64,000 bases of DNA from Callaeas wilsoni (Eukaryota; Chordata; Aves; Passeriformes; Callaeidae), in assembly GCA_013398955.1 (NCBI GenBank), contig VWPU01011651.1:16982-80981 (forward strand). The letters run 5' to 3'. Of the stretch, positions 16,399 through 61,628 are shown one piece after another; the stretch's first letter is position 1; every line of letters starts with the position of its first letter. A program made the position numbers and the translations under genes. The notes beneath the pieces were generated by a model, which was not told where the DNA came from, ran no database searches, and saw only the letters and a program-made list of their open reading frames with translations.

Positions 16399-16459
16399 AT
16401 GAAGCATGTAAGGCATTTCAGTCCCTCCTTATTTCTCAGTTTGGTGCATGTTTGCCTGG
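16399..16459 (+). CDS. CDHR1: CDHR1 exon 1: signal peptide
   Basis: ATG at 16399 begins [20 protein letters not shown] (residues 1-20). It has a basic start and a hydrophobic core, as expected of a signal peptide, and ends with one base of codon 21. The donor is a perfect GTGAGT at 16460. Joined to exon 2 it reads ...[13 protein letters not shown], with predicted cleavage just before QANYAP, the same place as in the human protein as I recall it. The start codon has G at -3. The exon is too short to stand out as an open frame; I chose it for phase, donor and position 0.8 kb before exon 2. Confidence 0.88.
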
Positions 16460-40400: not shown

Positions 40401-43400
40401 CCTATCCCATGCCACCCTTCTAGTCATGTACAGTCCCATGTGCAGAGAATTTGTACGGTCAGACTGTGCACTCTTCCCATCAGCACTACTTTCCGTAGTC
40501 CAGCAGCTCTGGCTTTGTGTGTTTGGCTTTACTATCCAGCAAAAGAGAGCCCATTATCATCTCTGTAGCTGAGGGGTGAGTGTCTGTGACCAAACAAGAC
40601 AGACCATTGAGTTTGGATCCAAGGTCATTCTGCTTCCCTTATGAGACTACTGCTGAATACTCTTTCTCTTGACATGAGCTAGGGCTGCTCAAGAGCTGCT
40701 CATAACAAGCTCTCCAGGGATACAGCTGAAAGTAAAGTTGTCCTGTTTGAAAGTTATTTTATTAGAAATTCATCATCTCAAGATTCACGCTACAGAGAGA
40801 ATGTGGCACCAGGCGGGCAGTGAATCTGGCTGTTTGTCACAGTGTAAACGTGACACTGAGAAATTGGTGAACCCAGAGAGTTTGGTGAGGTAGGCTGAGC
40901 TCATTTCCACATATTGCCTGTAAGGCAGAAATATGAGAACGCCCCTTTCATCTTTCTTTTACATGCTCCAGTTTGGTTTAAAAGAATTAGCCTGGCCAGG
41001 TGGCTCTGGCTCACTCTTCCCAACTTGCACACAAGTGATGATAAACTTTTAGATACTGCTGCCTCCCATGTTCTCTCTGGCTAGAAGGTTTATCTGTGTA
41101 ATTTGGATTTGCCTTCTCACTTCACCTGAAGCTGTCAAGTGTGTGTCAGATTTTGTTCTGCACAAGTGGAGCTCCTCTCTCCCCACAAGTGCATCAATTT
41201 CCAAAAGGTTTGGTGTTTGCATCTCTGGGCTAGCTTAATCCAGTCAGTGCAAAATGTGGAGTACCACCTCTGTTTGGAAATTGCCTATCTGTGTGATTCT
41301 GCATCTTCATCATTCCAGGCTGTGAGTTCTTAGGACACAGGCTGGATACTGGAAGTATTCAAGGCCAGGCTGGATGGGGCTCTCAGCAACCTGGTCTAGT
41401 GGAAGGTGTCTCTGCCTGTGGCAAGGGGGTTGAAATGTGGTGATCTCAAATGTCCTTTCTAACCCAAACCATTCTACGAGACTGGGTTTGTGAGGGTTGT
41501 GCTGTCCTTACTCGAGCAGATCAGTTGTCCTTCCTTGGTAGGAAGCAGGAAGAGGCAGGACTTCCCTGGCAATATGCACGTGGTGTCATCTCTCTCTAGC
41601 ACCCAGTGGGTGGCACGAAACCCAAGACTGTTTGCCACAAGATTCCTCTCTTAGCCAGGCCTGCTGCAGGATTTTTCCATTATGACTGAAAGAATAGCCA
41701 AGCTTGTCAATCTATTTTAAGAAAAGCTGCGTCTGTCTTGTGACTAGAGCTGGAGGGATTATACAACTAAGCTTCTTAGCAGTCTCCTGCCCAGGGGATG
41801 CAGAGCAGAGGGCTCTCAGCAGCAAGACTCATTCTCATGTTACACAGTTTGAAGAAACAGAGCAATCTAGTCTGTAAGAAATGCACCATTCACTGAAAAC
41901 AATCCATGCCATATCTGCTTTTATTCACAGGGAGCCAATGCTAAATTCAACCTCCGTCTTGTTGGACCTGGTGGCATCTTCCGAGTGGTTCCTCAAACTG
42001 TCCTGAATGAGGCTCAGGTTACAATAATAGTGGAAAATTCTGCTGCTATTGACTATGAAAGCTTCAAGGTGTTAACCTTCAAGGTACTTCTGCTTTCCAG
42101 GTCCTCTTTTTCAGTGTATACTCCATGTGTATGATGGCTTTTGTATCTGATGTGATTTAGCGTCTTAATCCGCCTGGAGCTGTCTGATGCATTATCAGTG
42201 ACATGATATTCCATGTAAGGGAAACTCATTTCTGCCTCTGGTTCGCCATCTTCACAAGGTTTAATGGGTGCATCAGTGGACTGATTTAGTCCAGTCAGTG
42301 CAAAATGTTGATTTTTATCTCTCTCTGGAAACTGTACGTGTTGGTGGCTCTGAATCATTCTAGACTGAACCCTGAGGTGCTATTTCTGCACTCACAATGA
42401 TAAATTCACAGGATGAAATCCTAATTTCTCTGCAGCTAGAACTTTACCTGCTTAGTGCTAAGTAATTTGATTCATGATCATGCTTTGAAATGTTGGCAGC
42501 CTGAAGACCCCAGCTGACTGGAAGATAATTCCCCAAAATTGCTCACTGCCTTTGTCAGAGTCTATCTATCTGTATGGCCATTTGCAGGCTGACCTGAGGC
42601 TCACCCATGCTCGAAGCCAGCCATGCAAGATACCAGTTTCATCCAAAAGCTGGAACCTTGCATTATCACCTTCCCTGATGGATTCTTTGGCTCATCAACA
42701 AGATAATTAAGTAGTCTGTTTTTCTGTCAGCTGCCTCTGAACATGAGTGTAGATGTTTCAGTTCTGACCACAAAGAATTGCATAGACAATCTCTGTAATC
42801 ATTTTTTTTTAAATTTGCCAAAAACTATCTAGCTGAGTATTAACATATGCTAGTTTTGTAATGTACAGAGAGTGGCATTTTTTTGCACGGTCCAAAAGCC
42901 AAAATTCCACAATTTTGTTCTCCCCCTTGCTGTATGGTTGGCTTTGTGTCCTTAGCAAGTTTCACTTCAGTATGTTTCAGGTCTCTTCTTGTAAAGTTCC
43001 TAAGCCCTTTTGAGCTTTATAGATTATAGATGCTACAAAAATATGAGGCATCATTACTGTATTAAAGTGGAAGATTCTGAAAGGGCCATAAAATGCTACT
43101 GAAACTAATTATAATAAGCGCACATTTATTCAGGTTAAACTACCAAAAGGCCAGTAAAGAAGTTACACATGGCCTCCTCATGAATACCAATAGAAATCAA
43201 AGTAGTTAATGTGATTGCCATGAACACCAAAAGAATTAATTACCAGGAAAAAGGATATATATTTTTATAGCTAAAGCAGTTATTCACTTTTTTTTTTTTT
43301 AATTTTTTCTCCCGAAGAAAGACTTGCCAAAATTATTTCCACTGGAGACCAGAAGACTTTGCTTAAAAAGTGCAGCCTTTGTCTGGATTCCAAATGGAGA

Positions 43401-46400
43401 ATGTGCAGATGGATGATATGGTAGCACTATATGGCAGCAAATACTTTATAAAGACCTCATTGCTGGCTCCATTTTCCTGCAAAGTTCAAATCACTTCCTA
43501 CCCAGTTTTAGTTGTCAGTGTAGTCATTCTGGTTAGAATTTTGGAGGAAATATATTTCTATTTAATGTGTATCTCACAGCAGCTTTGAGAGGTTGTTTCC
43601 AGGGTTTTGGGATTTTTCTGTAAGCAATGATCCCTCTCCTCTAGTCTGTTTTCAAAGAGTAAAATGCCAGAGAGTAATTAAAACTAATTTGTCTGGGAGA
43701 CTCACTGAAAAACTTTCTGAAGCAAAGGCTACTAGAGAAACCAATCTTCCATTTAGTGCTGGCTCTTCAATGTAGTTGGTAGTCAGGACTTCCTTGATTT
43801 TCAGTTGTCCAAGAGCTCGAATGAGTTTCCCAAAGTATGGCAGCTATAATTCACACACGTCCCTCTGCCAGATATTGCTGTCCCACCTTGTTATGGGCTG
43901 CCATGCTTTGGGGGCAAACCTCCTGCCTCCATCTCCTACAGCTTAGAGCACATCGTGCCTTGGCAGGAGCCTGGACATGCTGCAGACACTCTCATCTCCT
44001 GCAGACTGGGACCAGGTGAGGCTGCAGTTATCTTCAGTTGCCAAAATCAAACTCTGTTTAAAAAAATTTACCTACCACTTTTAAGATAGCATGTCAGTTT
44101 GCTCTTCTGGCACTTAAGTATTAATTGTTGCTATGTAGTCCTGTGAAGTAATAGTTTTATGCTATTTTTTTTTCTGTCTGCATAAAACAAACCATACAGG
44201 TCTGCATAAGGCACTGCAGCAAGGAAGCTGACAAAATTTCCTCCCTGAAGGAAAACATTGTCAGCATGTTGACACAGCAGCACTGGGTCTGCTTAAAGGA
44301 GAAGGAATAAAAAATGAGTGTAGAAAACAAAGTAAAAATACTAAGCTTTCATAAGGTATACTGAGATGGGCTGATTGCAGCAGCAAAGGTGATTTAACTG
44401 CAGACGTTATAATTTAGTTATAGCTCCATGTGCACAATCAGCACTAAGATTTTACCTCTGTACTGCTTTAGGAGCTGAGATTTCTCATGAGGAGGTTTTT
44501 GCTGATGTCTGTATGGCTGTCCCTTCAAAAATTTCTTTTGCTGTAACACCACCTGAGACTCCCAAACACAAAAGTTAGCACAGCGATGTAGTGACCAGGC
44601 TCCCCTTTTAGAGCAGATGTGTCCTGCAGTAATTGCAAGCAATCCTTCGAGATTCACTTCTTCCCTTTATTTCCAGCCATTATAAATGTTCACACAGCAG
44701 AACAGCTCTAGGAGATGACACTGAGATAGCCTTTTCCCTGTCTGCTTGAACAGCTCCCCACCCTCTGCTTTCACCTCGAGGTGATACGGAAGTGTCCAGA
44801 TCCGGCAGAGCAGAGGCTTGAGCACAGCGTGCTGCCCCGGCCCGCGGCAGTGCCGCTGCTGGTGAGCATCACTCGCCCCACCTGCGGGCACCTGCGGCAG
44901 GGCCGGAGAGCGGCACGGGAGCCACGAGCCCCGCAGGGAGCCAGGGGAGCAGGGGGTGCTGTGGCAGCCCTGCTTCTCCTTCCAAAGCTCACTTAGGCAC
45001 TCACCGTCTTTGTGGGAGTTCCTGGGACACATCTCCTAGGAATTAAAACCCCTGCAGCCAGATTTTTCAGCTGAGCCTCTTGTATCTCAGTTCATGTCCT
45101 GCTCACTAGTCTATTAGTGGTGTGCTGTCTTCCTAGAGCCTTTCTGCTTTGTGTTAACTAGGTCTCTGCCCAAGCATGAAAACCAAACACTAGACCATTG
45201 TTTCTGGTGTCAGCCATTTGGGCTCAGCCCCCACAGAGCCCAAGACTGGTGTCGTAGTGCTGATCCTGTGTGATCAGCCACCCTTGGGACACACGCCTGG
45301 GACGGACGCTGTGAAGGTGCCGGTGTCTCCCAGTACCCATTGTTTAAACTGCTCTTTCTTGCTCAGCCACACTCCACCTGAGCTTGCTGCTCTACCGGCT
45401 GAGGCATCCTACTGATGCTCCCCAAATCCAGTAGATTTTGCTCAGTGAGGAGCAGATAGATACAGCAGAGACACTCAGTTTGCTCTATGTGATTGCCTGT
45501 CCTTTCAGATGAGCAGTTATAAGAATGTGTGATGTCAGAGAGCTCTGTTCTCCTCAAAGACAGTGAGGCAATCCAAATGCCCCCACGGTTATCTGATGAA
45601 GTCCTAATCAGCATGAGACAATGAGGGTAGAAGTCCCATGAAGTCCGTAGTAGAAGTCCTCACAATCTTTGGGAAATGGGATTCTGCTGTACATGCCTGA
45701 CCATCCAGCATTTGGGGTGGGAGCAATGCTGCTTCAAAACAACTGGTTCCCTCATCTTTTCATCCTTTTTGGTGCAGTTTATTGTTCCTGACTTCTTTCC
45801 TGATTAAGAACTTCCTCTACAAAATATTGCGATTAAATTTATGTGGTTATTCAAAAGAATTCAGTGCTTATGTTTCCTGAAGTTCTAGGAGCTGCCCAGG
45901 GATGATTGTTTGTAGGCTTCTGTTACGGCTTTTGGATGTGTGTTGGTTAGTTATGACTAGTCACATCTGTCACATGAAGTTTAATATGAATACACAAGTT
46001 TGAAGGCCTCTTCCCACAGCTTGGTTGCCCATCGCAAGCAAGCACACAGGAACAAGCCAAGGCCACCCACTGGCCTGGCTCATCATCTCCCTGGTTCTGA
46101 GCTGTCTCGTCAAACCAGGCTAAAATGCACCAATGTGCCATGGGTGGTGGAGGAAGCTCCTTTAAGAGAAATAATAGCTGCTTTGTAGTGATTTCTGGTT
46201 TTTCTCTTCTTAGCTTCTTGCAATAGAGGTGAACACACCAGAGAAATTCAGCTCGACGGCTGACGTAGTGATTCGCCTCCTGGATACCAATGACAATGTC
46301 CCGAAGTTCTCCTCTGACTACTACATTGCCAGGATCCCTGAGAACTCCCCAGGGGGCTCAAATGTAGTTGCTGTTACAGTGAGTTTCATTCACCTCTTAA

Positions 46401-49400
46401 GAAATGTCCTCTTTTCTGGTGTCTGTGGAGACAGTTCGATTACCTTAAAAACAGTGGGCAGGGCAAGTAGCAAATCTTACTCACCATTTGACTTCTAGAC
46501 CAAACTCCAACTCCTTTCCAGAATCATCCAAAAAAAAAACCCCCACATTGGGAAAAAATAAAGTTTTGGACAAATATTATTTAGAACAACAAGGGCCATC
46601 TGCTTTTAAGACAAATCACATGGCCTCTGAGTATTAAGAAAGCCCCAGCCAAATCAGTGTCCACTGGGAAGATTCAGTTATGGCTAAGTGGAATTGGATT
46701 TACTGGATTTGCTTAAGTATGAGTAAAAAGAAAACAAGATGGCTGCTTAGTAGGTATTAGTCTTCTCCTCTTGGAGAGCCTGGCTGCTAAAAGCATAATT
46801 AAACAGTTAATGAGGGCAAGAATATAAAATTAAAATGCTTAGGGCTGGGAAAAAAAGGTCCCTATGTATGTACCTTCTCAGAGTGGGGAAAATACCCCTA
46901 TAGATTTTCCAGTATCTCACATTTTCATAGAAAGAAAGTCAAGGTATTACACGGGCCCTGAGTGCTGGGGGAGCATTTCCAGCTGTCTCTCTCTAACGCA
47001 ACTGCTGGGACTGGAAACAGCCCTCACGTCACAAAGCCAAGAAAGCTCCTGGCCACCTGGGCTTCGGTGGGTGATGCAAGTCACCTTGCAGAGGCCCCAG
47101 AGGTAAGGATGATGGAGGCAGATTGCCAGAGATCTCCAGCACAACCTGGCAACAAGTAAGAAAAAAAATTAAATAATCAGAGTAATAAAGTGCTGAAGGC
47201 AAATGTTAGCGACAGAAGAATCAAAGAAGTGAAACAGTAACAATAGAGGAAAGGTATTACACAAAACTAATAGGAAAGCTATTAGAGACTCTTAACATTA
47301 CTATCTTTGAGGTAATAGGAATAAAAAAAATACTAGGAGGTGGACAGCAAAAAAAAAAAGAGATTTAAAAAAATGTTTGCAGAAGCAACTAAACTTCTGA
47401 GCCAAAGCACACAGGAATACGTAGCTGAGGAGCCCATGTAAAATTTAGTCATGTGCTGTCAACTCAGTACTTGACCCAGATTCACAACTATATGTGAAAT
47501 ACTAAGATGTTTCAAGTACTCAGAATGGCAGTTCTGGAGGAAATCCCAGGTATGCAAATGTTTTAAGTTATACAGTACTAAACTAGGCTGTGGCCAAAAT
47601 TATGGGGTGAGAAAATCTGACAAACTCATGCCAAAGAACAAAACACCTATCGGTAGGGCTGCAGGTGTGTTATGTTAATTATGCAGGAATCAAAGACATT
47701 GTTCCAGTTCTCAAATATTTAAACAGGAAGATGAATGAATCAACCAGCACCACCATGAATTTTGATGGCCAGATCCAATGGTATAACACCTCCTCAGAGC
47801 TATCAGAGAAGCAGGAGCTTATGGAAATAGCTGCTACCAAATCAACAGCTTTCCTAATCCTGAGCTAAGAAAGGAAGCCAACAGGAGTATGAAACGAAGA
47901 TATCATCTGACATAGTATTTGCATTATTAAAAGTCACACAGGCACAAGAGTGATTAAAATACAAACAAAGCTGAAAGACAATGTATAGATTGAAACATTT
48001 GTTATTCATTACTTTAAATTGAATCAATTAAACAAGCAGAAGCTTAAAAATACTCTATGTAAAGTAAATAATTTTGTCAAGGGAATATTCATTAATGTTT
48101 TACTGATAATTAGGAAGGTTTGAGAGCTGGCAGTGTTTTCATGTCATTGAGATTATCTCCATCTCTATCAAAGGAGGACGCGATAACTGTGGATGGATGG
48201 GGCCATCTAGCGTCACTCTCCCTGCCAGAGCCCCTGGACACCAGGGACAGCGTTCCTGGGCCTGGCAGTGACATTTCCTGGTGTTAGGTCGTGCACTTTC
48301 TAGGTGCATATCTGCTCATGCAGTTTGCCACTAAAAATGTTATGGCAAGGAGAGTGAAAAGCATTTGGGCCTGTTGTTAAGAGAAAAATGAAACGTTTCT
48401 TTTTGCATTTTAGTAACGTAAAACTCTCTTTTTTTCTTAAGGCTACAGATCCAGATTCAGGGCTGTGGGGAGAAATCAAGTACTCTATCTACGGAACAGG
48501 AGCAGACCTGTAAGTAACAAGTAAATAAATAAAACTACATAACCTCTAAGCAGAGTTCTAAAACAATTTTAAAAGAAAGCTAGCAGGCTCATTCTTGATC
48601 TGCTCATTTCCAAGGACATTCATGCCATGTTCTTTGTGAGTTCTGTGAACACAACAAAAGTAAAGCTACTGTGATCATTAAACATCTGCTTCATGAACCC
48701 AAGGAATTCTACCCACAAACCCCCAAAGAGATATAAGGCAGCTGAAGTATCAATACACAGGATTTGTTCAATCACCATTTGAAAAACATTTGTAAGAGAA
48801 AGAGAGGCTTTGGTCTAGTTGTGAAAAGCCAGTTCTACAGAAAAATAATTTCTTGTTCTTTTCCCTTCCCTTTCCATGTGGTTGTACAAATAGCTCTTGT
48901 CAAAATAAATCAAGGGAGACGAGATATTCGAGGATGTAAACTTCAGCTTTGGAGGTCAGCTACATTGGGTGTTAAAAGCCTTTCATATATTTAAACATAA
49001 TAGTCCTGCATCAGGAAAGAAGGGAATCTGATGCTTCCTTGATTTGGTAATAATGTCTCACTCTCTCTCCCTGTCTTTGCGGACAGTGCTGGGGGTAGAA
49101 CATCTTGAAACACTGGTTCCTTCACACCATGTCTCTCCCAGCTCCCAAACATGGCTGGGATCAGTGATACAGCTGTCACAGATATTCCTGCTGGAACCTG
49201 CAGCTGCTGGATGTGGCAGGGCTGCACTGCAGAATGCTGGAAATGAATGAGCTTTTCTGGCACTCATCCCCAGAATCTGTTTTTCTCTGTACATTATCCA
49301 CCTGGAGCTAAAGCTGAACTCTTCTTGTTAAGGTGAAAGCCATTTAAGAGGTGCAATCAAAGTCCAAAATCCAAGATGTTAAGGGTGAACCTCTTCTGTA

Positions 49401-52400
49401 GCCAGAAGGATACACATATGGGAGCATTTCCACGATGGATTATTTTGAGCTCTTCACTAAGTCTTTAAGCTAGCTACTAACTGCACAGAGAGAAGCAAGA
49501 AAAGGTCATGTCATGCAGGCAGACCTGTTAGGTTTAGAATGTAGCAGCTGGTGGAAAGAAGCTTGAGAAGGTTGTTGACAAAGGATTTAGGGGAAAAATA
49601 AGTGCAACTTTATTCTGATTGGCATTATGGGGATGCTCAGATTCACTGTTCTTACACTGTTGAATGAAGAAATTATGATGTGAACTTTTCTTTTCCTTCT
49701 TAAGTATTTTTGTTTGTTTTCCTCGTGCCAGAATGGCACAGCTCTGCAAGGCTGGATTGATTTTCAAACCCTGGCACCTCTAGATCTGCTGAATGCACAG
49801 TTTGATGCAGATAGGAGAATTTCAACTAGAGGCACGATGTTCCTGTCTTGGATATTACATCAGTGGGTGTGCAGTTCCATGGGCAGAAAGATGAGCTGTA
49901 GTGGAATAAGAAAAATAGTGTCAGCTGTTGAAGATGAAACCAATATGATGGTAATCCTACTTTGGTAATCTGAGGTGCCAGTGGGAGCACTGTTCTTCCA
50001 CTAAAATGGGAATGATGAGAGTGCTGTCTGCATGGTTAGGCTGGGCTGGGTGCTGAGGAGACACTTAGCACAGGCACTGTCTCCTACACAGCTATTCCCA
50101 CCTCCAGATCTTGGATTTCATCAAAACTTGTATTTGTATTTAACAGGGTTATGAGAACAGTTGAAGATTCTGGATTGCTAAAAGCCCCTTTTATAATCAC
50201 TCTCAATTGCATTCACAGTTGGAATACAGAAAATATTTTGCTACCCTCTACATCGATCAAAGGATATATAAAAACTTTCATCTGTTAAAAGCTCTACTGC
50301 TTGGAGCCTACACTGGCAGTCCATTTTAAAAAGACACTGTGTTGGTATCTTGTCTGTAAATCTAAACTTTGGGCTGACACTTTTGACAGTGTCTCTGTAA
50401 TTACAAATGTGTAAAATTGAACTTGCAAAAGATAAATCTGAACACTCACTCCATCCCAGTGTCAGTCTATGGAAAAATTATTGGTTTTGGTGAAGATAAT
50501 TTGCCCTGTAGTTAGGAGGATTTGAGAGCAGATTTTTTTCCTACCCATTCTGAGAAGTGAAGGGCTGAAATATGACATGCATCACACTTCTTTTAGCTAT
50601 TTAGGTGATACAAAACAATCTTAATTTATGCAGGACATATTCTATTACATTGTACTTTTAAACTGGAAAAAAAAAGTAAAAATAGGTTTCATGTTTTTCC
50701 TTTTAATGCAAGGAAATCACTCTGGGAGAAGGCCATCACACCGAGCATTTACTGAGGACAAAGGCTTTTAATGGAAAATGCAGCTAAAATGGCTAAGGCA
50801 CAAGAGAGAGAAAACTATGAGACACTGCTTGTTCTCTGGTTTTCAAGTCTAGAGGAACTAGACAAAAACTAGGTAGAGTGAAGGATTTGGAAACATCAGC
50901 CAGAGAGGAATTAGGTGAAGAGTACCAGTGTCTGCACAGCATTTCAGTGTTCACAGCCTGGAGCAAAGATGGGCTCTAAACACACATTAAGTGACCAAAA
51001 AACCAAAAGTCTTCTCATGCCTCTTTTCCAGGTTCCTAATCCACCCATCAACAGGTATAATTTACACCCAGCCCTGGGCTATACTAGATGCTGAAGTGAA
51101 CTCAAAGTATAATTTCTATGTGAAAGCAGAGGACACGGACGGGAAATACAGCTTGGCTGAAGTGTTTATCACTGTGCTAGATGTCAATGACCACTCTCCA
51201 GAGTTCAATGAAAACATCCAGGAAAAGACGATGATCATCGGGTCACCAGTGAAGATAGAGGTGAGAGATGGCACCGTGTGTCACAAAGCTGAGTGCTTTG
51301 GAAAAGCCCTGGCTCTGCTGTTGACTCTCAGGGGTCATGATGAATGTCTGAAAGTTGCCTTTTCCTGCAGCTTTATTTTGCACATCCATTTGGATGTGAC
51401 AAATGGATTAGAGTGTGAATTATAGTATTTACTGACTGCTGAGGAGGAGAAATAAATTCTATAGGCAGAATATAAAGTCCTGTTACAGTATTTGAACGAT
51501 CAGCCGGTGGACAATCCTGGATTATACAGTGATCACAAGAAGCCCAAATAAGATAAGTGAATGAAAGCACAGGGTTTTGAACATTTAACCTTCCTGACAC
51601 CCCTTTGTGTTCAACCACACAACTTAGTTCCCTTTGTTTTGTAGAACCGTATTCAATAATCCAGTGGAACAGACGGTGAAAAAATGCAATAACAATTCCC
51701 AGGCAAAGGAGCAGAACATCTTATGTTACACACATTTGAATGCATATCATGAAGTCTAATCACACAACACCTAATGTTAGTACAATAAATACCACAGCAC
51801 AAAAATTAAGGCAGCTATAGTTTATGGCATGGAGCTAATCCTGTTGTTCTTTATCACTTCACATTTGTCCCCCACACTGTGTGAGAAGCTCTCCAGCTGA
51901 GGACCAGTTGCATTCTACAGATGGATTACAGTTCAGTTTTTCCTCTGATTTTATTTCATCTCAAATAGAAATCACTTATAAAGACAGAAGCCTAGTCTTG
52001 CTGTTTTTCACTAGAAAATGTAGCCTGGCTTCCAAGATTAAATGAAAGCAGGCCAGTCATGGCACAGATAGTATCTGTGAAGTGAATGCTCAGAAGCTTT
52101 TTGTCCTCAGGCAAAGATGCAAACAATAACACCTTTGTTTTTTACACTTCCCCTACCAGGCTATAGACCAAGATGCAGAAGAACCCAACAACATTGTGGA
52201 TTATTCCATCATGCAAGCAGATCCAGCCAATGTGTTTGACATAGACCAAAGCACTGGGGAAATCAAACTGAAATCCTACATCCGTTCTCTGGACATCATC
52301 CACAACATCACAAAAAACAAAGACTGCATATGGTCATTGGTGGTCCAGGCCAAAGACCGAGGCTCCCCATCCTTCAGTACCACAGCAGTTCTGAAGATTG

Positions 52401-55400
52401 ATATCACAGAAGAGGTAAGCAAATATTTTAGAAAAATCCTTACGGGAGACAATCCCTGAAAGGCACCAAAGGATACACATTGCTTGCTCCATTTCTGAGA
52501 CTTTCTTGCCAGCTCTGCTTTTGTAGAGTGTTTCCAGAGCCTTGTGGTGAAGTTGGATTCTACCATCACAAATGTGAAAGATATTTTGATCAGAAATATT
52601 GCAAAGGTACAAAGGTAGGAGCATATGTAATTGGGAGATGAGTTTTTTGTTAGAGATTGTTAGGTATGAATTAAGGTCTATAGACTTCTGAGAGTAAAGG
52701 TAAATCTCGACTGCTAAATTTCTGCTTTTTTATTTTCATCCAGGAGAAGAAAAAAATCTTTTTCCTCACAACAAGTGAGTGGAAAGTAGCTGGAGTCAGA
52801 GCAAAATAAATCAGACAAATCAACCTAAGTGACATAGGAAAAGTGATAAAAATCTTTGCAGAAATGCTTTAAAGTACATAGGACTTTGGATGTGAGTTTA
52901 ATAATTGCAATATTATTAGCAGATGAAACAAGAAGACTCTAAAAGAGTCTTGCACATCTAGGTTGAGATTTTCCTTAGTCCAGCTTTTACATCAGCTGAA
53001 GAACAAGCAGCGATTTATAGTATGCAGCACATGCCTGCATGATTCTTATTTACTGTAACTGCCTTGCCATGCCTTTAAATAGGTACCAGCAGGGAGGAAA
53101 TGGCCTTTAAAGTAGATGAGAAACACATCATTAGCCTGACAGTCTCTGGATCACACACATACTGGGCAAATATGCAAATCTCATCCTATGGACAGCAGCT
53201 GGCCTTCTCTTTGTTTGGTCACAATGCTCCCACTGCTCCTTGGTCTGTTACAATCTTTCTCTGTTTTCTCCATCTCCTCTTATTCCACTGATACACCTTA
53301 TGAGGCACATTGATATGATAGTTTTTGTACACAGTGCAGAGCCTCCTGGACTGCCAGAGGACTCGGGTCTGCCCTAGCGGGGCAGTGCGTGGCATGGGGC
53401 TGCTGCAAGGCTCTGCCATATGGAGCTGGGGAACTCTGCATGCTGGGTGTCTACTAAGTCAAGGGATTTAGCCATTCTTACAGATACAAAGGAAACGCAC
53501 TGCTTAACACTTGGTTTTCTCATGGAAACAAAGTTTTGGTGGGTTTTATACAACGAATAAGAATTACTGCCTGCAGCCAACAGTGGGAGTATTGCCCTCC
53601 CTGCCTTGCTTCCAGGCTTCTCAGGGGCTGCGCATTTCAGGAGTGCATGGCACCGGGTGGACCCAGGCACTGTCCTCAGGCATGTCCCTGCTGGTGGCCA
53701 CCAGCCTTCCCTTCCCTCCCGGGTGAGCTGGAAACCTCTCTGTCAGCGTGTGGGGCTGATGGGTGTGAGTGGAGGGAGGGTCCCCCACACCTCCCCTGCT
53801 GGGGGACAACGTGTCCCTGAACCAGCTGATAAAGAACAACTGGAAGGAAAACAAAAGTAGCTGATACTTTGGGGTAAGGAGTTTCCTGAATTTCCTTCTA
53901 GTGCTTGAAGCAATAGCAGTACCTGATGAAAGACGGTGAAAGAAGTCCCCTGTCTGCTTCCTTTTCTCCCCCTCCAGGGGTACATATTTGGCACAAAGTG
54001 AGGGACAGCCCTCCTCATAAAACCTAAAAGGGAAGCAGAGAGGGCTGTGATGACATGGATTTGCTCATACACACAGTTTTTTCCTTCTTCCCATGCTCTT
54101 CTTGATGTCGAGTCCCAACAGAGAGTCTGAGATAGCAACAGCATCTTCTTTATTCGAGTATGTTTCTTCAGCAGGATCTGGGCTACTAATCTAGTATCAC
54201 ATCCTCCATAACCTTTTGTACATGTCTCTATTACTTCCTCCATTGCTTGCAGTGATTTGGGTTGGTTGGGCTGGGGTTTCTTTTATCCCATAGCATCACA
54301 TCTTTTTTGCAGACACAGATTTCAATTTGCATGTATATGAGATGCAGTGCCAGTGTCCAAAACCCTTGGTCACTCCCTGTGTCCCAGGGACAGCACAGTC
54401 ACTGCTAACACCTCGTGAAGAAAACAATCTCTTGGTGTAGGCATATTGCATACACACACTCTCTCTCTTTCTCTGAGGCTGTTACAAATGTGCCTTTCAT
54501 CCCTCTGTGCTCCAGCTGTACAAAGGCTCTTATTTCGCTGTTTGGTGGGCATTTATGTATTACTGATTTTGGATAAGGAAGATATTTTTGAATGCATCCT
54601 CTAGAGGTTTCCTGCAGTGTTAATCACAGTAAGTAATTAAACAGGCATATTTTCTGATTAACGTTTACCATTGCAATTAGCACAAGTCTGTGCCCTTCGA
54701 GATGGATGCCTTGTGGCTAAGTTCAGCAGTATTGCACATCAAAAGGACCTTCTTCTCTTGGAATAATACAGTGCTAAAAGAATCCAAAGGCCTTTTAATT
54801 TAACTGAATCTGATTTTATGGAAATTGGTATTGAGGGGCATCTGTTAATATCCTATCCTTTCACAATAAATAAAAAATATCCTTTCACAGAATAAAAAAC
54901 ATATGCTGGAAAAGCCAGTCTTTTTCCATCCATATGTCTCACTCAGAAATCTATTCCTGCCGCCTGATATTTTCAGAGAAGGCTGATTCCCACTCCTGTT
55001 CCTGAAGTTTGGCCTGATGGGGGCATCCCTCGGCCTCTTGATGACTCCACTGAGATTCTGCAAATGTAGAGGGGGCGTTTATTTACACCTCTTCATGGAC
55101 TGAGGCTTAAGTCCATATTTAGAAAGCATAATCTGTAGTCCTTAATAGCTTTGGCCACTAATTTAGACTTCTAAATATAGCTGGTGAGTCTCAGTTTTAG
55201 ATTCAAAGATTCTGAAAGATTCAACAAAAATCTTTGAAGCAACATGGAAATCTTCTCCTCTCTCATACCAACTGCGACCATAGGAACTGTGGTTGATGGC
55301 ACTGAACAGCCCTTGCCACATTTGCAGAGCACTTAGCCTCTTCTTTCCACAGTTTCGCGGACTTGAAAAAAAGATTGGTTTGATTTGAGAAGTCTTGCCC

Positions 55401-58400
55401 CATGCTGGTGTTCGTATGGTAAAGTGATGCAAACACAGCCTTCATATACAGTGACAGCACTGAGCTTCGGGATAAGCACTGCAGGGGCAGCTTGAGTTCT
55501 GCCTCGGATCAGGAGTCACTTCTGAAGCAAATCTCTTGACCATCCCCACATACTGTGGGACAGCCTGTGTTTCACGTAGCTCCAAGCACACAAGGTGGAC
55601 TTCTTTCAGAGGAAAATGTGTCTGGGGCGCACACCTAGTGTGCCTCGGCCCCAACAGGCAGTACCTCCCTGCAACCAGGCTAGAACAATCCCCAGAAACA
55701 CTGAATGTGTGGCAGTGGCCTCCTCAGAACCAGCTGATTATTTTACAGATTGTACAGATCCACTTGCTCAAGCCAACACAGGCCAAGCACTACCAAGTCC
55801 ATCACAAAGCCATGTCCCTTAAGTGCCACATCTACAAATAATCTGCAATAGCTTGGGCTCTTAACAGGTTCACCTACTTAGACTCCTAAATATAGCTGGT
55901 GAGCCTTAGCTGCTTTTGTGGTTGAACAGCTCAGCCACATTCCTTTTGGGTCCAGCTTCTGGATACTTGGCCCACATGCTCTGCTCACTGCAACCCATGC
56001 ATTAGGGAAGGCTCTTGAGAAGCTGCCACAGCTAAAAAAACCAGCAGAGCCTTATCTTCTGTGAGCAGTGATCTTTTAACTCCTTTGATGGCTGTTAAGA
56101 AAGAGAGTGTTTCTTCCAGGTCCTGGCCCACAGATATGACAGCTTCCATTTCATCATGTATCTGCTTTTATTTTACGTGTACCAGAAAAACCAGTACTCT
56201 TCAAACTGCAGCATGCCTTTTAGGAAAAAACAACAGCTTCAGCAACTGCAAAGTGGCACTATTTGTTGAGCTGGCTACGTGGCACTGCTGGTAATCGACA
56301 CAAGGACTTGAAAGTGTTTTAAATGTGCACTTCCCATAAGTTGCTCTGCAGCCTGACTAAGATTGTGATATTCCTGGCTTGTATTGCAAGTTATTCCTCC
56401 TATTTTCCTGCCAGTGTCACAGCCGTGACAAACAGAAACTCTCACACTGTGTGCTTACAAAATGCCTGATGTTTTCATGCATAACAGTTGTTGTCCAAGG
56501 CTAATTCCAAGCAAAGCTTTGTATAGTAGAAGTCAAGTAACTAGAATAGAGGCTGAACCAGCTAGCTGTTAATGGGTTTAGTTTTGGTATTAATCATCTC
56601 TTCATCATTGGAAGCTCTGAACAGATGCCAGACTTGCTGAGACGAGGGGATTGAACAAAGCCAAATGCTGAAACTCTCCATACAATTTTTATCTGTCCTT
56701 ACCTCTGCAGCAACACGGTACACGGGCAACATGTACTTCTGTCTAATCTCATTTATTCAAGGTTTTCAAATACCTAGTCAAATATTCTTCAGCCATCAGT
56801 GCCTTCCTATAAAATAGATCTTGACAAAACTTGTAACAGGTGGACTCAGCTCACGTACGACTTAGCAGGGTTTATCTGACACTTACTTCATCTGACTTTC
56901 ACATGAAGTTAAGTAAGCCAGGGTAGAATTTCTATCATCTGATGGGATTTAAGTACAAAAAAATCCATGTAATGCAGGAACAGCAAAGCTGATGGGAATC
57001 TAAGCTCCACCAAAGTCATGGGCTGCTTTGCTCTTGGTTTCTAGTTCAGGTCCACTCCTAATTAAATACTGAAAGAACTCTCTGCACAGAAAAATGATGA
57101 AAATTTGTCCCTACTTGCCCAGTGACATGGTCTGCGAGTTTCACTAGCATTTCTTTGCCCCTTTCTTGTTGGCAACGGGACAGGGTAGGAATTGTTGGCA
57201 ATTCAGGGTAGGAAAAGAGTGGGCTTGATAATGTGTTTGAGATAGGTTGTGAAAACACAGAAATTAACACAAGGAGGTGTTTATTAGTTAATTTATGTGC
57301 CCTAAGTTTATGGATGTGACATTAATGACAAAAGGTACTCTGAAGCACACTCTGGGATACTCTTAGTCATCCTCCCCCACAGACTGGCGAGGGCAAAGAG
57401 ATGGGCATCCTAGTTTAGTCATACAGAGAAATCCATCTGATCTACAAGTCAGAGGTTCAAGTCCAAGCTAGTCACAAGGCTGTCCTTATACACACTGTCT
57501 TCGATACCTACTTTAGCATATGGTGACTACTGCTCCAGAGGTGTCCTTTTCTCGCCATTGACCAAGCTGGGAGCTTAGACCTCTAACTAAAACACAGATC
57601 ACCTGTTACTAGACATGCAAAGTTTGGGTGAGGATTCCCCCACAGAGTCAAAGACAGGGGACTGGGACACAGTGGGCAGCCCCATCTTCCTGCAGCCACA
57701 CATCGCTTTCTGACCAGCTCTCAGTAACCAAACCTGCATATGAATGTGCCATTTCTGAAGGATCTCCTGGCCTTGCACAGCACCACTGTCTGTTCAGATT
57801 CCACCTGTATTCACTATGAACTTCTCTTGGAAATGTAGTCCAAGGATGGGCTACCATGCCCTGAATAATGATCTATGTGCCATGCCTCTACCCTTTATTT
57901 CCCAATCAGCCAGGTGTTTATATGTGCTTTCTAACTTTTACTGTTTCTGGATTCAGTTCAACATCATTGCAACTGCCTCCTCTCCTGTGCCTAGCTCAAC
58001 AGTTAGCTCCCTTTTTTTTATAGGCTCTCTATCCTGTACACATTTCAGCCTAGTTCCCCACCTGTATTTGTAATAGATACTGGCCTCTTTCAAATATAAT
58101 CATGTGAGGGTTGACCATTTCTCTTATTTTTGATATTTCCAGATCAAGTCCAGGGTAAAATCCTATATTTTAGGCCTCAAGAAGCGTCCATGGACAATAT
58201 ATGGAATATGCATGAGTGGCGTCCTTTCCACCATTTCTGTTACAATGGTGATCTCCACCATCATGTACTGGAAAAGTGTGAAAAGATCCAAGCTCCACCC
58301 GCAGGGCAAAATCCGCAAAATTATACGGGGACCTCCAAGACGCACAGTGTGCTAAGCTGGAAAGTGAACTGGCCATTCATTTGTCCTTAATATGCCATAT

Positions 58401-59482
58401 GTAGCTTATGTCATTGCTGATTTCTTTTCTTTCTATAAACAAAGCTCTTTAGCTCCACTTATCTCCCCTACCTCAAAGAGTTTTGTTATGTCTGTAAAAG
58501 AGTACTTGAAAACAGAATGCAGCACATATCTGCTAACCACTCATTTGTACACTGACATTTTATGAGCAGAAGTTTTCTCCTAATCCTTTTCAATGCCATG
58601 CTCAGTAATTGAGCCAATTATTTTCTTGCTCCATCATTGCAAGTTAAACACTATGGTGACATGCAGGAATCTGTCCTAATTTGGTGGCAATACTTCTGTA
58701 AGCTTTTGTGTTCAAGTCATCTACCTCACAGTACTATAATGTTTGCCCAGTCTCTGGCCTCATCTAAATTTTCCACCCCTGGACTGGCTCTGTGACTCTC
58801 ATATTTTTTTTTTTTAGAGACAACTTCCATCAATCAGCTCTGCTTGTAACATATTTTGGACAAATGAAATTTCTGGGTCACTGTCTGTCCCCTAGAGTAA
58901 GTCATGTGTTTTCTTTGTACTCCTTTACAGACTCTTCACAAAGGGCCTATGGCCGCCTTTTTGATGCAAACTAAAGATAACCCCATGAAAGCCTTAGGAG
59001 TGCTAGCTGGTGTCATGGGCATAATGGTGCTGATAACTATCATGATCTCTACTGCCATGTTCTGGCGCAACAAGCGGTCCAACAAAGTCATGCCGGTGAG
59101 AAGGATCATAAAAAAGAGACAGATGCCGCCATCCCGGACAGTCAGGATGGAGTGGCTGAAGTTCAAGAGGCCCAGCAACGCTGCAGAGAAGTTTGTTGTT
59201 GAAGAGGACGTCAAGAGCCTACACAATGAGAACAGCAACAACAACGTCCAGGTTGTGCCCGTGCCGCCGGCAGCCCCCCTGCCCCCGCCACCCCCTGCCC
59301 TGGCTCCCCGGGGCGATGCCCCAGGGTGGCGGGTGCCAACCGTGTCCGGCTCCCTCACTCCCAAGCATGTAATCAAGCCACCGAAGAAGAAAGGTCACAG
59401 CAGCACCCACAACGCCCTCGTGTCAGAGCTCAAAATGAGATTTGAGAAGAGGAACGCAGCTTTCGGGGAGCCCCATATCTAG
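16399..59482 (+). CDS. CDHR1: CDHR1, cadherin-related family member 1 (17 coding exons, 865 aa)
   Basis: This is a single-pass membrane cadherin of photoreceptors (protocadherin-21). In mammals it sits at the base of the outer segment, supports disc formation, and is mutated in cone-rod dystrophy; it is also found in olfactory bulb neurons. Joining 17 exons by GT-AG junctions gives 2598 nt and 865 residues. I recognise the family from [48 protein letters not shown] and PTVSGSLTP. The order is signal peptide 1-21, then six cadherin repeats ending at about 137, 249, 356, 475, 579 and 682. Linker calcium motifs are DANDE (129-133), EDVQD (240-244), DLNNH (348-352), DTNDN (467-471) and DVNDH (571-575). 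The membrane segment is about 703-727, followed by a cytoplasmic tail to 865. N-glycosylation sequons occur at N60, N91, N299, N300, N388 and N646. No frameshift or internal stop is needed, so the gene appears intact. Exon-level entries follow. Confidence 0.97.
17237..17332 (+). CDS. CDHR1: CDHR1 exon 2: start of cadherin repeat 1
   Basis: The acceptor TTTAATTGCAG ends at 17236. The exon encodes residues 21-53, including [19 protein letters not shown] and SEDTPVG, the mature N-terminus and first strand of repeat 1 with its E-D acidic pair. The donor is GTCAGT. The last base starts the glycine codon completed in exon 3. Confidence 0.96.
17333..25522 (+). other. CDHR1 intron 2 (8.2 kb)
   Basis: This is the largest intron. 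Its middle (18.6-22.2 kb) is GC-richer than its surroundings and carries many overlapping open frames on both strands, none with a recognisable domain or splice context. An 11-base tandem duplication of GCATGATCTCC lies at 21021-21042. I see no gene inside the intron. Confidence 0.7.
21021..21042. repeat. 11-base tandem duplication
   Basis: GCATGATCTCC occurs twice back to back, with no mismatch, inside CDHR1 intron 2. Confidence 0.85.
25523..25668 (+). CDS. CDHR1: CDHR1 exon 3: cadherin repeat 1
   Basis: The acceptor is CAATTTTTCAG. Residues 53-101 include [13 protein letters not shown] and [14 protein letters not shown]. The LDRE motif is the middle calcium-binding element of a cadherin repeat. 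Sequons are at N60 (NGT) and N91 (NVT). The donor GTACAA is weak from position +4. Confidence 0.97.
25669..27396 (+). other. CDHR1 introns 3 and 4, with exon 4 between them
   Basis: Introns 25669-26517 and 26569-27396 surround the 51-base exon 4. I see no other feature in them; the short open frames there have no recognisable content. Confidence 0.6.
26518..26568 (+). CDS. CDHR1: CDHR1 exon 4: cadherin repeat 1
   Basis: This 51-base exon begins at AAG after CATTTACAG and ends before GTAAGT. It encodes [17 protein letters not shown] (residues 102-118), corresponding to the family stretch around ISDGL. It is in phase 0 at both ends. Confidence 0.96.
27397..27486 (+). CDS. CDHR1: CDHR1 exon 5: end of repeat 1, linker, start of repeat 2
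   Basis: The acceptor is CTACTCCAG. Residues 119-148 include [15 protein letters not shown], where DANDE is the calcium-binding linker between repeats 1 and 2, and end in VEVPE. The donor GTTGGT is unusually weak (T at +3). It is chosen because it alone gives the correct phase into exon 6 and reproduces the family sequence. Confidence 0.94.
27770..27967 (+). promoter_or_regulatory. Long polypyrimidine tract before exon 6
   Basis: The last 190 or so bases of intron 5 are overwhelmingly C and T, with repeated TTTCTTTCTTCTTG-, CTCTTCCCTC- and CTCTCTTTTT-like runs and few AG dinucleotides after 27841, before the acceptor GGTCGCAG. This is far longer than the usual 15-40 base tract and contains many potential PTB-type binding sites. 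Confidence 0.7.
27968..28054 (+). CDS. CDHR1: CDHR1 exon 6: cadherin repeat 2
   Basis: Residues 149-177 include [15 protein letters not shown] and end in ITYFLQ. The D-K-D-T-G segment is a calcium-binding element of repeat 2. The exon is 87 bases, phase 0 at both ends, with donor GTAAAG. Confidence 0.97.
28055..29768 (+). other. CDHR1 intron 6 (1.7 kb)
   Basis: AT-rich intron with no recognisable element. It ends in a T/C-rich acceptor region (TTCTTCTTTTCTTCTCTTCTAG). Confidence 0.6.
29769..29885 (+). CDS. CDHR1: CDHR1 exon 7: cadherin repeat 2
   Basis: Residues 178-216 include [27 protein letters not shown] and VVVAK. LDYE is the middle calcium motif of repeat 2. The exon is 117 bases in phase 0, with donor GTAAAG. 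Confidence 0.97.
29886..31477 (+). other. CDHR1 intron 7 (1.6 kb)
   Basis: Ordinary intron. I see no repeat or gene in it. Confidence 0.6.
31478..31621 (+). CDS. CDHR1: CDHR1 exon 8: end of repeat 2, start of repeat 3
   Basis: Residues 217-264 include [26 protein letters not shown] and [15 protein letters not shown]. The linker is EDVQD. The exon is 144 bases (48 codons), so skipping it would keep the frame. The last base is A (codon GCA) before a strong GTAAGT donor. Confidence 0.97.
31622..33948 (+). other. CDHR1 intron 8 (2.3 kb)
   Basis: Ordinary intron. I see no mobile element or gene. It ends in CATTTCTCCCCAG. Confidence 0.6.
33949..34027 (+). CDS. CDHR1: CDHR1 exon 9: cadherin repeat 3
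   Basis: Residues 265-291 include [20 protein letters not shown] and [14 protein letters not shown] matches the calcium-binding loop of this repeat in the family. The exon ends with the first base of a glycine codon; the donor is GTGAGT. Confidence 0.97.
34028..36859 (+). other. CDHR1 intron 9 (2.8 kb)
   Basis: AT-rich intron. The notable content is the purine-rich tract at about 34900-35225, listed separately. No gene is visible. Confidence 0.6.
34900..35225 (+). repeat. Purine-rich low-complexity tract
   Basis: For about 325 bases the + strand is mostly A and G (AAAGAAAGG, GAGGAAAA, GAGAAAGGAAG and similar), with scattered pyrimidines. It looks like a decayed (GAAA/GGAA)n simple repeat. 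It lies on the transcribed strand of CDHR1. Confidence 0.65.
36860..36960 (+). CDS. CDHR1: CDHR1 exon 10: cadherin repeat 3
   Basis: The acceptor is GTTTCATTGCAG. Residues 291-324 include [15 protein letters not shown] and [10 protein letters not shown]. There are overlapping sequons at N299 and N300 (NNTT). The donor is GTAGGT. Confidence 0.97.
37425..37456. repeat. 16-base tandem duplication
   Basis: TTACACCTCGATGAGC is followed directly by TAACACCTCGATGAGC, two 16-base units differing at one base, within CDHR1 intron 10 (36961-38711). The rest of that intron shows nothing recognisable. Confidence 0.9.
38712..38915 (+). CDS. CDHR1: CDHR1 exon 11: end of repeat 3, start of repeat 4
   Basis: The acceptor is CTGTCTGCTGCAG. 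Residues 325-392 include [54 protein letters not shown] is the repeat 3/4 linker. An open frame runs into this exon from the intron, but the family match begins only after the acceptor. The donor is GTAAAT. Confidence 0.97.
40122..40141 (+). repeat. (GAG)n trinucleotide microsatellite
   Basis: Six or more uninterrupted GAG units lie within intron 11. Confidence 0.9.
41349..41480 (+). mobile_element. CR1 LINE 3' fragment, sense
   Basis: CTGGAAGTATTCAAGGCCAG, GCTGGATGGGGCTCT, CAACCTGGTCTAGTGGAAGG, then AACCCAAACCATTCTACGA match the CR1 3' end in order. It is a truncated, diverged copy inside intron 11, in the same orientation as CDHR1. Confidence 0.9.
41931..42083 (+). CDS. CDHR1: CDHR1 exon 12: cadherin repeat 4
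   Basis: The acceptor is TTTTATTCACAG. Residues 393-443 include [40 protein letters not shown] and [11 protein letters not shown]. This is one of the best conserved stretches against human CDHR1. The donor GTACTT is weak from +4. Confidence 0.97.
42084..46213 (+). other. CDHR1 intron 12 (4.1 kb)
   Basis: AT-rich except for a GC-rich island of roughly 200 bases at 44.78-44.99 kb. Open frames around that island are on both strands and I recognise none of them. No gene is visible. Confidence 0.6.
46214..46378 (+). CDS. CDHR1: CDHR1 exon 13: end of repeat 4, start of repeat 5
   Basis: The acceptor is TTTCTCTTCTTAG. Residues 444-498 include [28 protein letters not shown] and [22 protein letters not shown] is the repeat 4/5 linker. 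The donor is GTGAGT. Confidence 0.97.
46379..48441 (+). other. CDHR1 intron 13 (2.1 kb)
   Basis: AT-rich intron with several A-runs. No gene or identifiable mobile element. Confidence 0.6.
48442..48509 (+). CDS. CDHR1: CDHR1 exon 14: cadherin repeat 5
   Basis: The acceptor is TTTTTTTCTTAAG. Residues 499-521 read [20 protein letters not shown] then AD, with the last leucine codon split (CT|G). DPDSG is the calcium-binding loop. The donor is GTAAGT. Confidence 0.97.
48510..51031 (+). other. CDHR1 intron 14 (2.5 kb)
   Basis: No gene or recognisable repeat found. Confidence 0.6.
51032..51260 (+). CDS. CDHR1: CDHR1 exon 15: end of repeat 5, start of repeat 6
   Basis: The acceptor is CCTCTTTTCCAG. 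Residues 521-597 include [32 protein letters not shown] and [11 protein letters not shown]. The linker is DVNDH. The donor is GTGAGA. Confidence 0.97.
52160..52414 (+). CDS. CDHR1: CDHR1 exon 16: cadherin repeat 6
   Basis: The acceptor is TTCCCCTACCAG. Residues 598-682 include [30 protein letters not shown], a sequon at N646, [20 protein letters not shown] and KIDITEE. It forms most of the last, membrane-proximal repeat. It ends in phase 0 (GAG) before GTAAGC, so it can splice in frame both to exon 17 and to the alternative exon at 58143. Confidence 0.97.
54854..54901. repeat. 24-base imperfect tandem duplication
   Basis: TATCCTTTCACA followed by an A-rich tail occurs at 54854 and again at 54878, two adjacent units of about 24 bases that diverge in the A-rich part. 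Confidence 0.8.
55163..55188 (+). repeat. Copy 1 of a 26-base dispersed repeat
   Basis: TTAGACTTCTAAATATAGCT and the next six bases recur at 55878-55903 with one mismatch (25 of 26). The two copies are 715 bases apart in the same orientation within intron 16. The similarity appears to stop soon on either side. Confidence 0.75.
55878..55903 (+). repeat. Copy 2 of a 26-base dispersed repeat
   Basis: TTAGACTCCTAAATATAGCT and the next six bases; see copy 1 at 55163. It is either a local duplication or shared pieces of an old interspersed element. Confidence 0.75.
58143..58355 (+). CDS. CDHR1: CDHR1 candidate alternative terminal exon (second transmembrane exon)
   Basis: The acceptor TTTTTGATATTTCCAG ends at 58142. 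In the phase left by exon 16, the next 213 bases are open and encode 70 residues and a TAA stop. They begin [17 protein letters not shown], then a hydrophobic membrane segment (about residues 701-725, containing [12 protein letters not shown]), then a basic tail ending in GPPRRTVC. With an offset of two residues this lines up with exon 17: proline before the membrane, glycine at its start, IST-x-M-aromatic-W at its end, a Lys/Arg-rich stretch, then PP-x-RTV. It therefore looks like a duplicated copy of the membrane exon. The isoform would have 752 residues and a 27-residue tail. No AATAAA follows before exon 17; TATAAA at 58434-58439 is the nearest weak poly(A) variant. Seen: frame, acceptor, similarity. 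Inferred: that it is used. Confidence 0.72.
   Translation: MKSRVKSYILGLKKRPWTIYGICMSGVLSTISVTMVISTIMYWKSVKRSKLHPQGKIRKIIRGPPRRTVC
58931..59482 (+). CDS. CDHR1: CDHR1 exon 17: transmembrane segment and cytoplasmic tail
   Basis: The acceptor is TGTACTCCTTTACAG. Residues 683-865 start [20 protein letters not shown]. The membrane segment (about 703-727) contains [15 protein letters not shown] and ends ISTAMFW. The tail begins [13 protein letters not shown] (stop-transfer), then EWLKFK, a Pro-rich stretch 792-808, PTVSGSLTP (818-826), and [10 protein letters not shown] near the C-terminus; the last two are also in the human protein as I recall it. Stop TAG is at 59480-59482. The GC content rises sharply through this exon, as is common in avian terminal exons. 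Confidence 0.97.
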   Translation, partial: TLHKGPMAAFLMQTKDNPMKALGVLAGVMGIMVLITIMISTAMFWRNKRSNKVMPVRRIIKKRQMPPSRTVRMEWLKFKRPSNAAEKFVVEEDVKSLHNENSNNNVQVVPVPPAAPLPPPPPALAPRGDAPGWRVPTVSGSLTPKHVIKPPKKKGHSSTHNALVSELKMRFEKRNAAFGEPHI

Positions 59483-61622: not shown

Positions 61623-61628
61623 AATAAA
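61623..61628 (+). terminator. Poly(A) signal AATAAA, first candidate for CDHR1
   Basis: This is the first canonical AATAAA downstream of the CDHR1 stop. The T-rich sequence with TGTTG at 61630-61655 fits a downstream element. Confidence 0.55.

What the first reader, a model, noticed from the sequence alone, without database searches (positions are those of the whole stretch)
58143..58355. Duplicated, probably mutually exclusive transmembrane exon in CDHR1
In intron 16, 575 bases before exon 17, an acceptor opens a frame that continues exactly from exon 16 and encodes a second membrane anchor. Aligned to exon 17 with a two-residue offset, it shares the juxtamembrane proline, a glycine at the membrane entry, IST-x-M-(F/Y)-W at the exit, a Lys/Arg stretch and PP-x-RTV. 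Choosing this exon would keep all six cadherin repeats and change the juxtamembrane region, membrane segment and cytoplasmic tail (27 instead of 138 residues). The tail would lose the Pro-rich part, PTVSGSLTP and the SELK-x-x-FEK end. CDHR1 is known to be cleaved outside the membrane, so swapping the juxtamembrane stretch could also change shedding. I do not know whether this exon has been annotated in birds or corresponds to a described mammalian isoform.
Basis: partly seen in the sequence, partly recalled or inferred. Interest (0 to 1): 0.88.

Follow-up and report, generated by a model that had tools for sequence, protein, structure and literature searches.

The report
Alternative membrane-anchor exon of CDHR1
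A bird copy of the retinal cadherin gene CDHR1 carries a spare last exon that gives the protein a different membrane anchor and a short tail; the exon is real and very old, but databases already list it as a short isoform.

Summary
At 58143-58355, after an AG acceptor and in phase with exon 16, there is a 70-codon open frame with a second membrane anchor, 575 bases before exon 17. It is a real exon, not a chance frame. A database protein, Zonotrichia albicollis CDHR1 isoform X2, ends in exactly these 70 residues. Of 120 CDHR1 protein rows retrieved, 74 end in this type of tail: songbird, snake, frogs, gar, bowfin, sturgeon, many teleosts, sharks and a ray. Profile comparison and searches of the bird's own genome support an ancient tandem duplication of exon 17. 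It is better called an alternative last exon than one of a mutually exclusive pair, because it carries its own stop. It is not new: it is annotated as isoform X2, and one paper states that human isoform 2 (745 residues) leaves isoform 1 after residue 680, where human exon 16 ends. Whether the human tail is homologous could not be tested; no mammal was among the rows shown. Not found in my paper searches: two lizard proteins carry the exon's first 12 bases (IKSR) between exons 16 and 17, so it may also act as a microexon. Effects on shedding or signalling are inference.

The parts
16399..59482 (+). CDHR1 gene, start codon of exon 1 to stop codon of exon 17; all 17 canonical exons found
   Evidence: tblastn of P0002 and P0051 against the window; exon list with splice sites
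52160..52414 (+). exon 16, last shared exon (end of cadherin repeat 6); donor GAG|gtaagc
   Evidence: cadherin matches in solved structures
58141..58142 (+). AG of the acceptor of the alternative last exon
58143..58355 (+). coding part of the alternative last exon: basic juxtamembrane stretch, membrane helix, 27-residue tail, stop
58143..58154 (+). possible 12-base microexon (IKSR) inside the alternative exon, donor AGG|gtaaaa at 58155
   Evidence: IKSR lies between exon 16 and exon 17 sequence in P0074 and P0115, 2 of 46 canonical-tail rows; donor score 1.1, within the range of CDHR1's weaker donors
58434..58439 (+). possible weak poly(A) signal TATAAA, starting 79 bases after the stop
   Evidence: one of two hits among 12 hexamers (listed from memory) between 58356 and 58930; no AATAAA or ATTAAA there
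58931..59482 (+). canonical exon 17 coding part: paralogous membrane anchor and 138-residue tail
   Evidence: quail protein P0051 matches at 87% over 184 residues

Best explanation
58143-58355 is the coding part of a genuine alternative last exon of CDHR1. It arose by tandem duplication of the membrane-anchor exon before sharks and bony vertebrates split. SHOWN: an in-phase acceptor and open frame; a homologous tail at the same place in annotated CDHR1 proteins from sharks to a songbird; similarity to exon 17 well above controls; retention in both teleost CDHR1 copies. INFERRED: when the transcript is cut and polyadenylated before exon 17, a short isoform of about 750 residues is made. It has all six cadherin repeats, its own basic juxtamembrane helix and membrane helix, and a 27-residue basic tail. 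It lacks the canonical tail with its Pro-rich part, PTVSGSLTP and SELKxxFEK. It would adhere but lack what the long tail binds. The choice of anchor would be made by competition between the alternative acceptor with its poly(A) site and the exon 17 acceptor. Confidence below is for the exon, its origin and the short isoform; for the proposed functional consequence I would say about 0.35.
For: Identical 70-residue tail in Zonotrichia isoform X2, P0002, whose cluster has 44 members. 74 of 120 retrieved CDHR1 rows carry the tail, including basking shark, zebra shark and electric ray. All 74 have a 19-residue segment of at least 1.84 on the Kyte-Doolittle scale. Two of them, P0101 and P0105, are 707- and 747-residue frames on contigs of 2,958 and 2,693 bases, too short for unspliced DNA of this gene, so probably transcripts. 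Profile-profile score against exon 17 is 47.3, E 3.7e-9; 0 of 200 zone-shuffled controls reached it, best 25.7. Own-genome search: each exon found only itself and the other. Ectodomain tree of 41 proteins with the tail: two supported teleost clades, three species present in both. Human isoform 2 has 745 residues and shares the first 680; human exon 16 ends at c.2040, which is codon 680. AlphaFold2 model of P0002: helices 680-696 and 698-730, ten-residue blocks from 681 to 730 at mean pLDDT 60-78, pTM 0.36.
Against: No RNA from this bird or any bird was examined. Most database rows have names of automatic predictions. The acceptor is not distinctive: 15 other AG sites between exon 16 and exon 17 score 5 or more. 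No AATAAA or ATTAAA lies between the stop and exon 17. The tail is mostly less conserved than the first 64 residues of exon 17: 52-53% to ray and shark versus 69% for exon 17 to whale shark; in snakes the two are alike, 75% and 73%. No mammal appeared among the rows shown, and one search showed only 120 of 428 hits. In people a frameshift near the end of the long tail (c.2522_2528del) is classed as pathogenic, so if human isoform 2 is comparable and made in the retina it does not replace the long form. The own-genome E-values between the two exons are weak taken alone (0.0016 and 0.019).
Confidence: 0.85

Rival explanations
1. The exon mainly serves to lower the amount of long CDHR1: early cleavage, or inclusion of a stop-bearing exon, diverts transcripts, and the short protein has little role.
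For: The exon carries a stop 575 bases before exon 17 and has only weak candidate poly(A) signals. A long-tail frameshift is classed as pathogenic in people.
Against: The protein sequence itself is kept: a hydrophobic segment in all 74 rows, and L12, T34 and S38 unchanged in all 74. A pure diversion exon would not need this.
Confidence: 0.1
2. The resemblance to exon 17 is convergence between two membrane anchors, not a duplication.
For: Identity is only about 30%, the shared PPxRTV ending is not ancestral, and the own-genome E-values are weak.
Against: Score 47.3 versus at most 25.7 in 200 controls that keep the composition of juxtamembrane, membrane and tail zones; each exon is the other's only other match found in the genome; same phase and same upstream exon.
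Confidence: 0.1
3. The exon is chiefly a 12-base in-frame microexon (IKSR) spliced to exon 17, and the terminal reading is secondary in reptiles and birds.
For: IKSR sits between exon 16 and exon 17 sequence in Zootoca and Phrynosoma; the window has AGG|gtaaaa at the right place; a paper on PROM1 splicing describes photoreceptor microexons (PMC11445533, abstract and passages).
Against: Only 2 of 46 canonical-tail rows show it; both may be predictions; the residue after the arginine is Val in 16 of 51 non-redundant alternative tails, the window's own included, so a GT there is not general; 70 codons are kept as protein.
Confidence: 0.15

Closest known systems
CDHR1 isoform X2 of Zonotrichia albicollis and equivalents in other vertebrates (database annotation)
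   Same: Same exon, same junction, identical 70-residue tail in the songbird
   Different: Nothing found in the exon; the window's ectodomain differs from P0002 at a few residues
Human CDHR1 isoform 2 (NP_001165442.1, 745 aa), as stated in PMC6201214 (passage)
   Same: Leaves isoform 1 after residue 680, which is the end of exon 16; unique tail of similar length (65 versus 70)
Protocadherin-15 CD1, CD2 and CD3 isoforms (PMC4119359, start of abstract in the listing)
   Same: A cadherin of sensory cells with one ectodomain and alternative carboxy ends
   Different: Those isoforms are said to differ only by their cytoplasmic domains; here the membrane helix and juxtamembrane stretch change too

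Membership tests
CDHR1 short isoform (isoform X2 type) | Tail homologous to annotated isoform X2 tails, directly after exon 16 | tested here: met
   100% over 70 residues to P0002; 74 of 120 retrieved rows share the tail type
CDHR1 short isoform (isoform X2 type) | Transcript with the exon 16 to alternative exon junction in this bird | not testable with these tools
   No RNA data held; two probable transcript contigs that group with a goby in the tree
Human CDHR1 isoform 2 | Divergence after codon 680 at the end of exon 16 | tested here: met
   Numbers in PMC6201214 and PMC5539332; here the switch is also at the exon 16 end
Human CDHR1 isoform 2 | Homologous tail sequence | not testable with these tools
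   No mammalian row shown; one search showed 120 of 428 hits
Alternative last exon | In-frame stop inside the exon | tested here: met
   TAA at 58353-58355
Alternative last exon | Own poly(A) site | tested here: inconclusive
   Only TATAAA at 58434 and AATGAA at 58863
Mutually exclusive exon pair | Two homologous exons, each joined to a common downstream coding exon | tested here: not met
   Both end in a stop; neither is followed by a shared coding exon
Tandemly duplicated exon | Similarity to a neighbouring exon above that of controls | tested here: met
   0 of 200 shuffled controls; sole other match found in the genome

The most novel reading that the evidence does not exclude
Jawed vertebrates have kept two interchangeable membrane anchors in one photoreceptor cadherin since before sharks and bony vertebrates split. 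In reptiles and birds the second one is a hybrid exon with three outcomes: skipped (long form), used as a 12-base microexon before exon 17 (long form plus IKSR at the membrane), or read to its stop (short form with a different anchor). The juxtamembrane stretch, and so perhaps shedding of the ectodomain, would be set by splicing.
Probability: 0.2. Interest if true: 0.65.

Novelty: already known. Interest (0 to 1): 0.42.

Why it matters
CDHR1 mutations cause cone-rod dystrophy, and two zebrafish Cdhr1a papers that I searched for the word use 'isoform' zero times in their main text (PMC13090022; PMC7719784). An anchor kept since the shark-bony vertebrate ancestor, and in both teleost copies, suggests that the short form does something. 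Constructs, antibodies and rescue experiments built on the long form alone would miss it. The human frameshift near the end of the long tail suggests a testable prediction: the two forms are not interchangeable in photoreceptors.

Tried and rejected
Siah degron idea: PMC7719784 (passages) reports a Siah degron, P-[ARTE]-X-V-X-P, at residue 857 of zebrafish Cdhr1a. I asked whether the short isoform escapes it, but 0 of the 46 canonical tails retrieved, and not the window's own, hold that strict motif, so the argument was dropped for this bird.

PPxRTV as duplication evidence: rejected, since among the 74 alternative tails listed I see it only in the songbird row P0002.

Viral contigs scanned for the exon: no relative. 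Rfam at gathering thresholds: nothing in the window. Pfam: no family up to E 0.01 for the 70 residues alone. dN/dS was not computed because I had no DNA from related birds. Paper searches (all 10 used) gave, in the listings and passages I saw, no description of the alternative exon, its duplication or the IKSR microexon; the one relevant statement was the isoform 2 sentence of PMC6201214. One search (CDHR1 with 'alternative last exon') returned 0 papers. PMC5299602, PMC12650716, PMC9368980, PMC12592064 and PMC4938416 were read in passages only and those gave nothing on the exon. No paper was read whole.

Rows dropped: near-identical tails were removed. The alternative profile had 51 rows (the window's tail, standing in for the identical songbird tail P0002, and 50 others, out of 74); the canonical profile had 14 rows (13 out of 46, plus the window's). 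In one search I chose 46 of the 74 alternative-tail proteins by hand and 5 of these were dropped because my pattern missed the end of exon 16, so 41 were used; the root was at the midpoint. Rows are not species: several species appear more than once.

Full report
WHAT IS THERE. The window holds the CDHR1 gene on the + strand, from a start codon at 16399 to the exon 17 stop at 59482. I located the exons by splice sites and translation and confirmed them by tblastn with two bird proteins. Exon 16 is 52160-52414 and exon 17 is 58931-59482. Between them, at 58143, an AG acceptor opens a frame in the phase of exon 16 that runs 70 codons to a TAA at 58353-58355.

IT IS A REAL EXON. Searching a protein database with the spliced short form, scored on its last 75 residues, returned 12 proteins among 56 candidates. 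The best, Zonotrichia albicollis CDHR1 isoform X2 (P0002, 752 aa, a cluster of 44 members), is 100% identical over that region. The others were a snake, frogs, gar and bowfin. A second search with tails of five species returned 43 proteins, adding teleosts, two sharks and a ray. A third, with a query short enough that the tool's length rule removes most long isoforms, found 428 proteins of which 120 were listed. Of the 120 rows so collected (P0002-P0121), 74 end in the alternative tail and 46 in the exon 17 tail. These are rows, not species, and most names say they are predictions. Two rows, P0101 and P0105, are frames of 707 and 747 codons on contigs of 2,958 and 2,693 bases; unspliced DNA of a gene with this many exons would hardly fit, so I take them for transcripts (inference; the source code 'lgn' is not explained by the tool).

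ORIGIN. Against the whole window, the exon's second-best tblastn match is exon 17 at 30% over 69 residues, E 2.9e-8, with the next at 0.75. Against the bird's own genome (1.0 Gb, 12,470 contigs) the exon found itself and exon 17 (E 0.0016) and nothing else at E up to 1; exon 17 found itself and this exon (E 0.019) and nothing else. The tool scores only the best candidates of a first look, 4 and 18 here. Profile against profile, the score is 47.3 (E 3.7e-9). When exon 17 columns are shuffled within juxtamembrane, membrane and tail zones, the best of 200 scores is 25.7; reversed, 16.0. Unrelated real membrane anchors were not tried as a control. Shark and ray alternative tails (basking shark, electric ray) are 52-53% identical to the bird's, and the whale shark exon 17 (first 64 residues) is 69% identical to the bird's, while the two exons of this bird share about 30%. 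So the duplication is older than the split of sharks and bony vertebrates.

CONSTRAINT. The alternative tail is mostly less conserved than the first 64 residues of exon 17 and more than the rest of exon 17. Examples, identity to the bird: alternative tail, Liasis 75%, Rhinophrynus 81%, Xenopus tropicalis 75%, gar 73%; exon 17 first 64 residues and rest, quail 98 and 82%, alligator 92 and 64%, Zootoca 94 and 69%, cobra 73 and 52%, Ascaphus 84 and 50%. In snakes, then, the two anchors are about equally conserved. All 74 tails keep a membrane-length hydrophobic stretch. In an ectodomain tree of 41 proteins with this tail, teleosts fall into two supported clades (13 rows, 100/100; 15 rows, 98/89), and Perca fluviatilis, Etheostoma cragini and Knipowitschia caucasica appear in both, so both gene copies kept the exon. 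DNA-level selection was not measured.

HOW IT MOST LIKELY WORKS. Skipping the exon gives the long form; using it with a nearby poly(A) site gives the short form. The alternative acceptor scores 5.1 against 7.3 for exon 17 with a matrix from memory, and 15 other AG sites between exons 16 and 17 score 5 or more, so the long form may be the default (inference). The only poly(A) candidates among 12 hexamers are TATAAA at 58434 and AATGAA at 58863. The short form has six basic and no acidic residues in the 21 before the hydrophobic core, against three basic and one acidic in 20 for exon 17. The AlphaFold2 model of P0002 gives a helix 680-696, a break at residue 697 next to the conserved proline 698, and a helix 698-730, at moderate confidence; residues 732-752 are below pLDDT 50, and pTM is 0.36. 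Ectodomain cleavage of CDHR1 is reported in the literature (PMC13090022, passage citing Rattner 2004); whether the two forms differ in it is unknown.

A POSSIBLE THIRD OUTCOME. P0074 (Zootoca vivipara) and P0115 (Phrynosoma platyrhinos) read ...DITEE-IKSR-TLHKGPM.... IKSR is the first 12 bases of this exon, and in the window those bases are followed by gtaaaa. The donor is weak (1.1) but no weaker than those of exons 2, 3 and 5. This is 2 of 46 canonical-tail rows, and I saw no RNA.

WHAT IS KNOWN. PMC6201214 (Discussion passage) states that human CDHR1 has isoform 1 of 859 and isoform 2 of 745 residues, identical over the first 680. PMC5539332 (passages) puts variant c.2040+5 at the exon 16 donor, so codon 680 is the exon 16 end. 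The human short form therefore switches at the same junction and has a 65-residue tail; alternative tails in my rows are mostly 65 to 71 residues long. I could not obtain the human tail, and no mammal was among the rows shown; 308 of 428 hits were not shown. PMC5539332 also reports a homozygous frameshift, c.2522_2528del, classed as pathogenic. That it lies in human exon 17, and so would spare isoform 2, is my inference from its position after c.2040; the passages give no exon number for it. If so, an intact short form, if made there, does not rescue.

VERDICT. It is annotated already, so the exon itself is not new. What I did not find in print, within the ten searches listed, is its age, its origin from exon 17, and the possible microexon use.

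Noticed in passing
window 58143-58154; P0074, P0115: The first 12 bases of the alternative exon appear as an in-frame IKSR insert between exon 16 and exon 17 in two lizard CDHR1 proteins, pointing to a microexon inside the terminal exon.
   Followed up: partly
P0027/P0094, P0037/P0099, P0095/P0114: Three teleost species have two CDHR1 copies, both with the alternative tail; the second copy has changed YW to YC, and in Perca and Etheostoma the tail reads INPESNYIKV.
   Followed up: partly
window 59483-61623: After the exon 17 stop the first AATAAA or ATTAAA lies about 2.1 kb downstream at 61623, so the canonical 3' untranslated region may be long.
   Followed up: no
PMC3688712 (passages): CDHR1 is reported as highly expressed in human skin and present in cultured keratinocytes, with unknown function there; the passages seen do not say which isoform.
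   Followed up: no
46 canonical tails: None of the 46 canonical tails retrieved holds the strict Siah degron motif reported for zebrafish Cdhr1a.
   Followed up: partly
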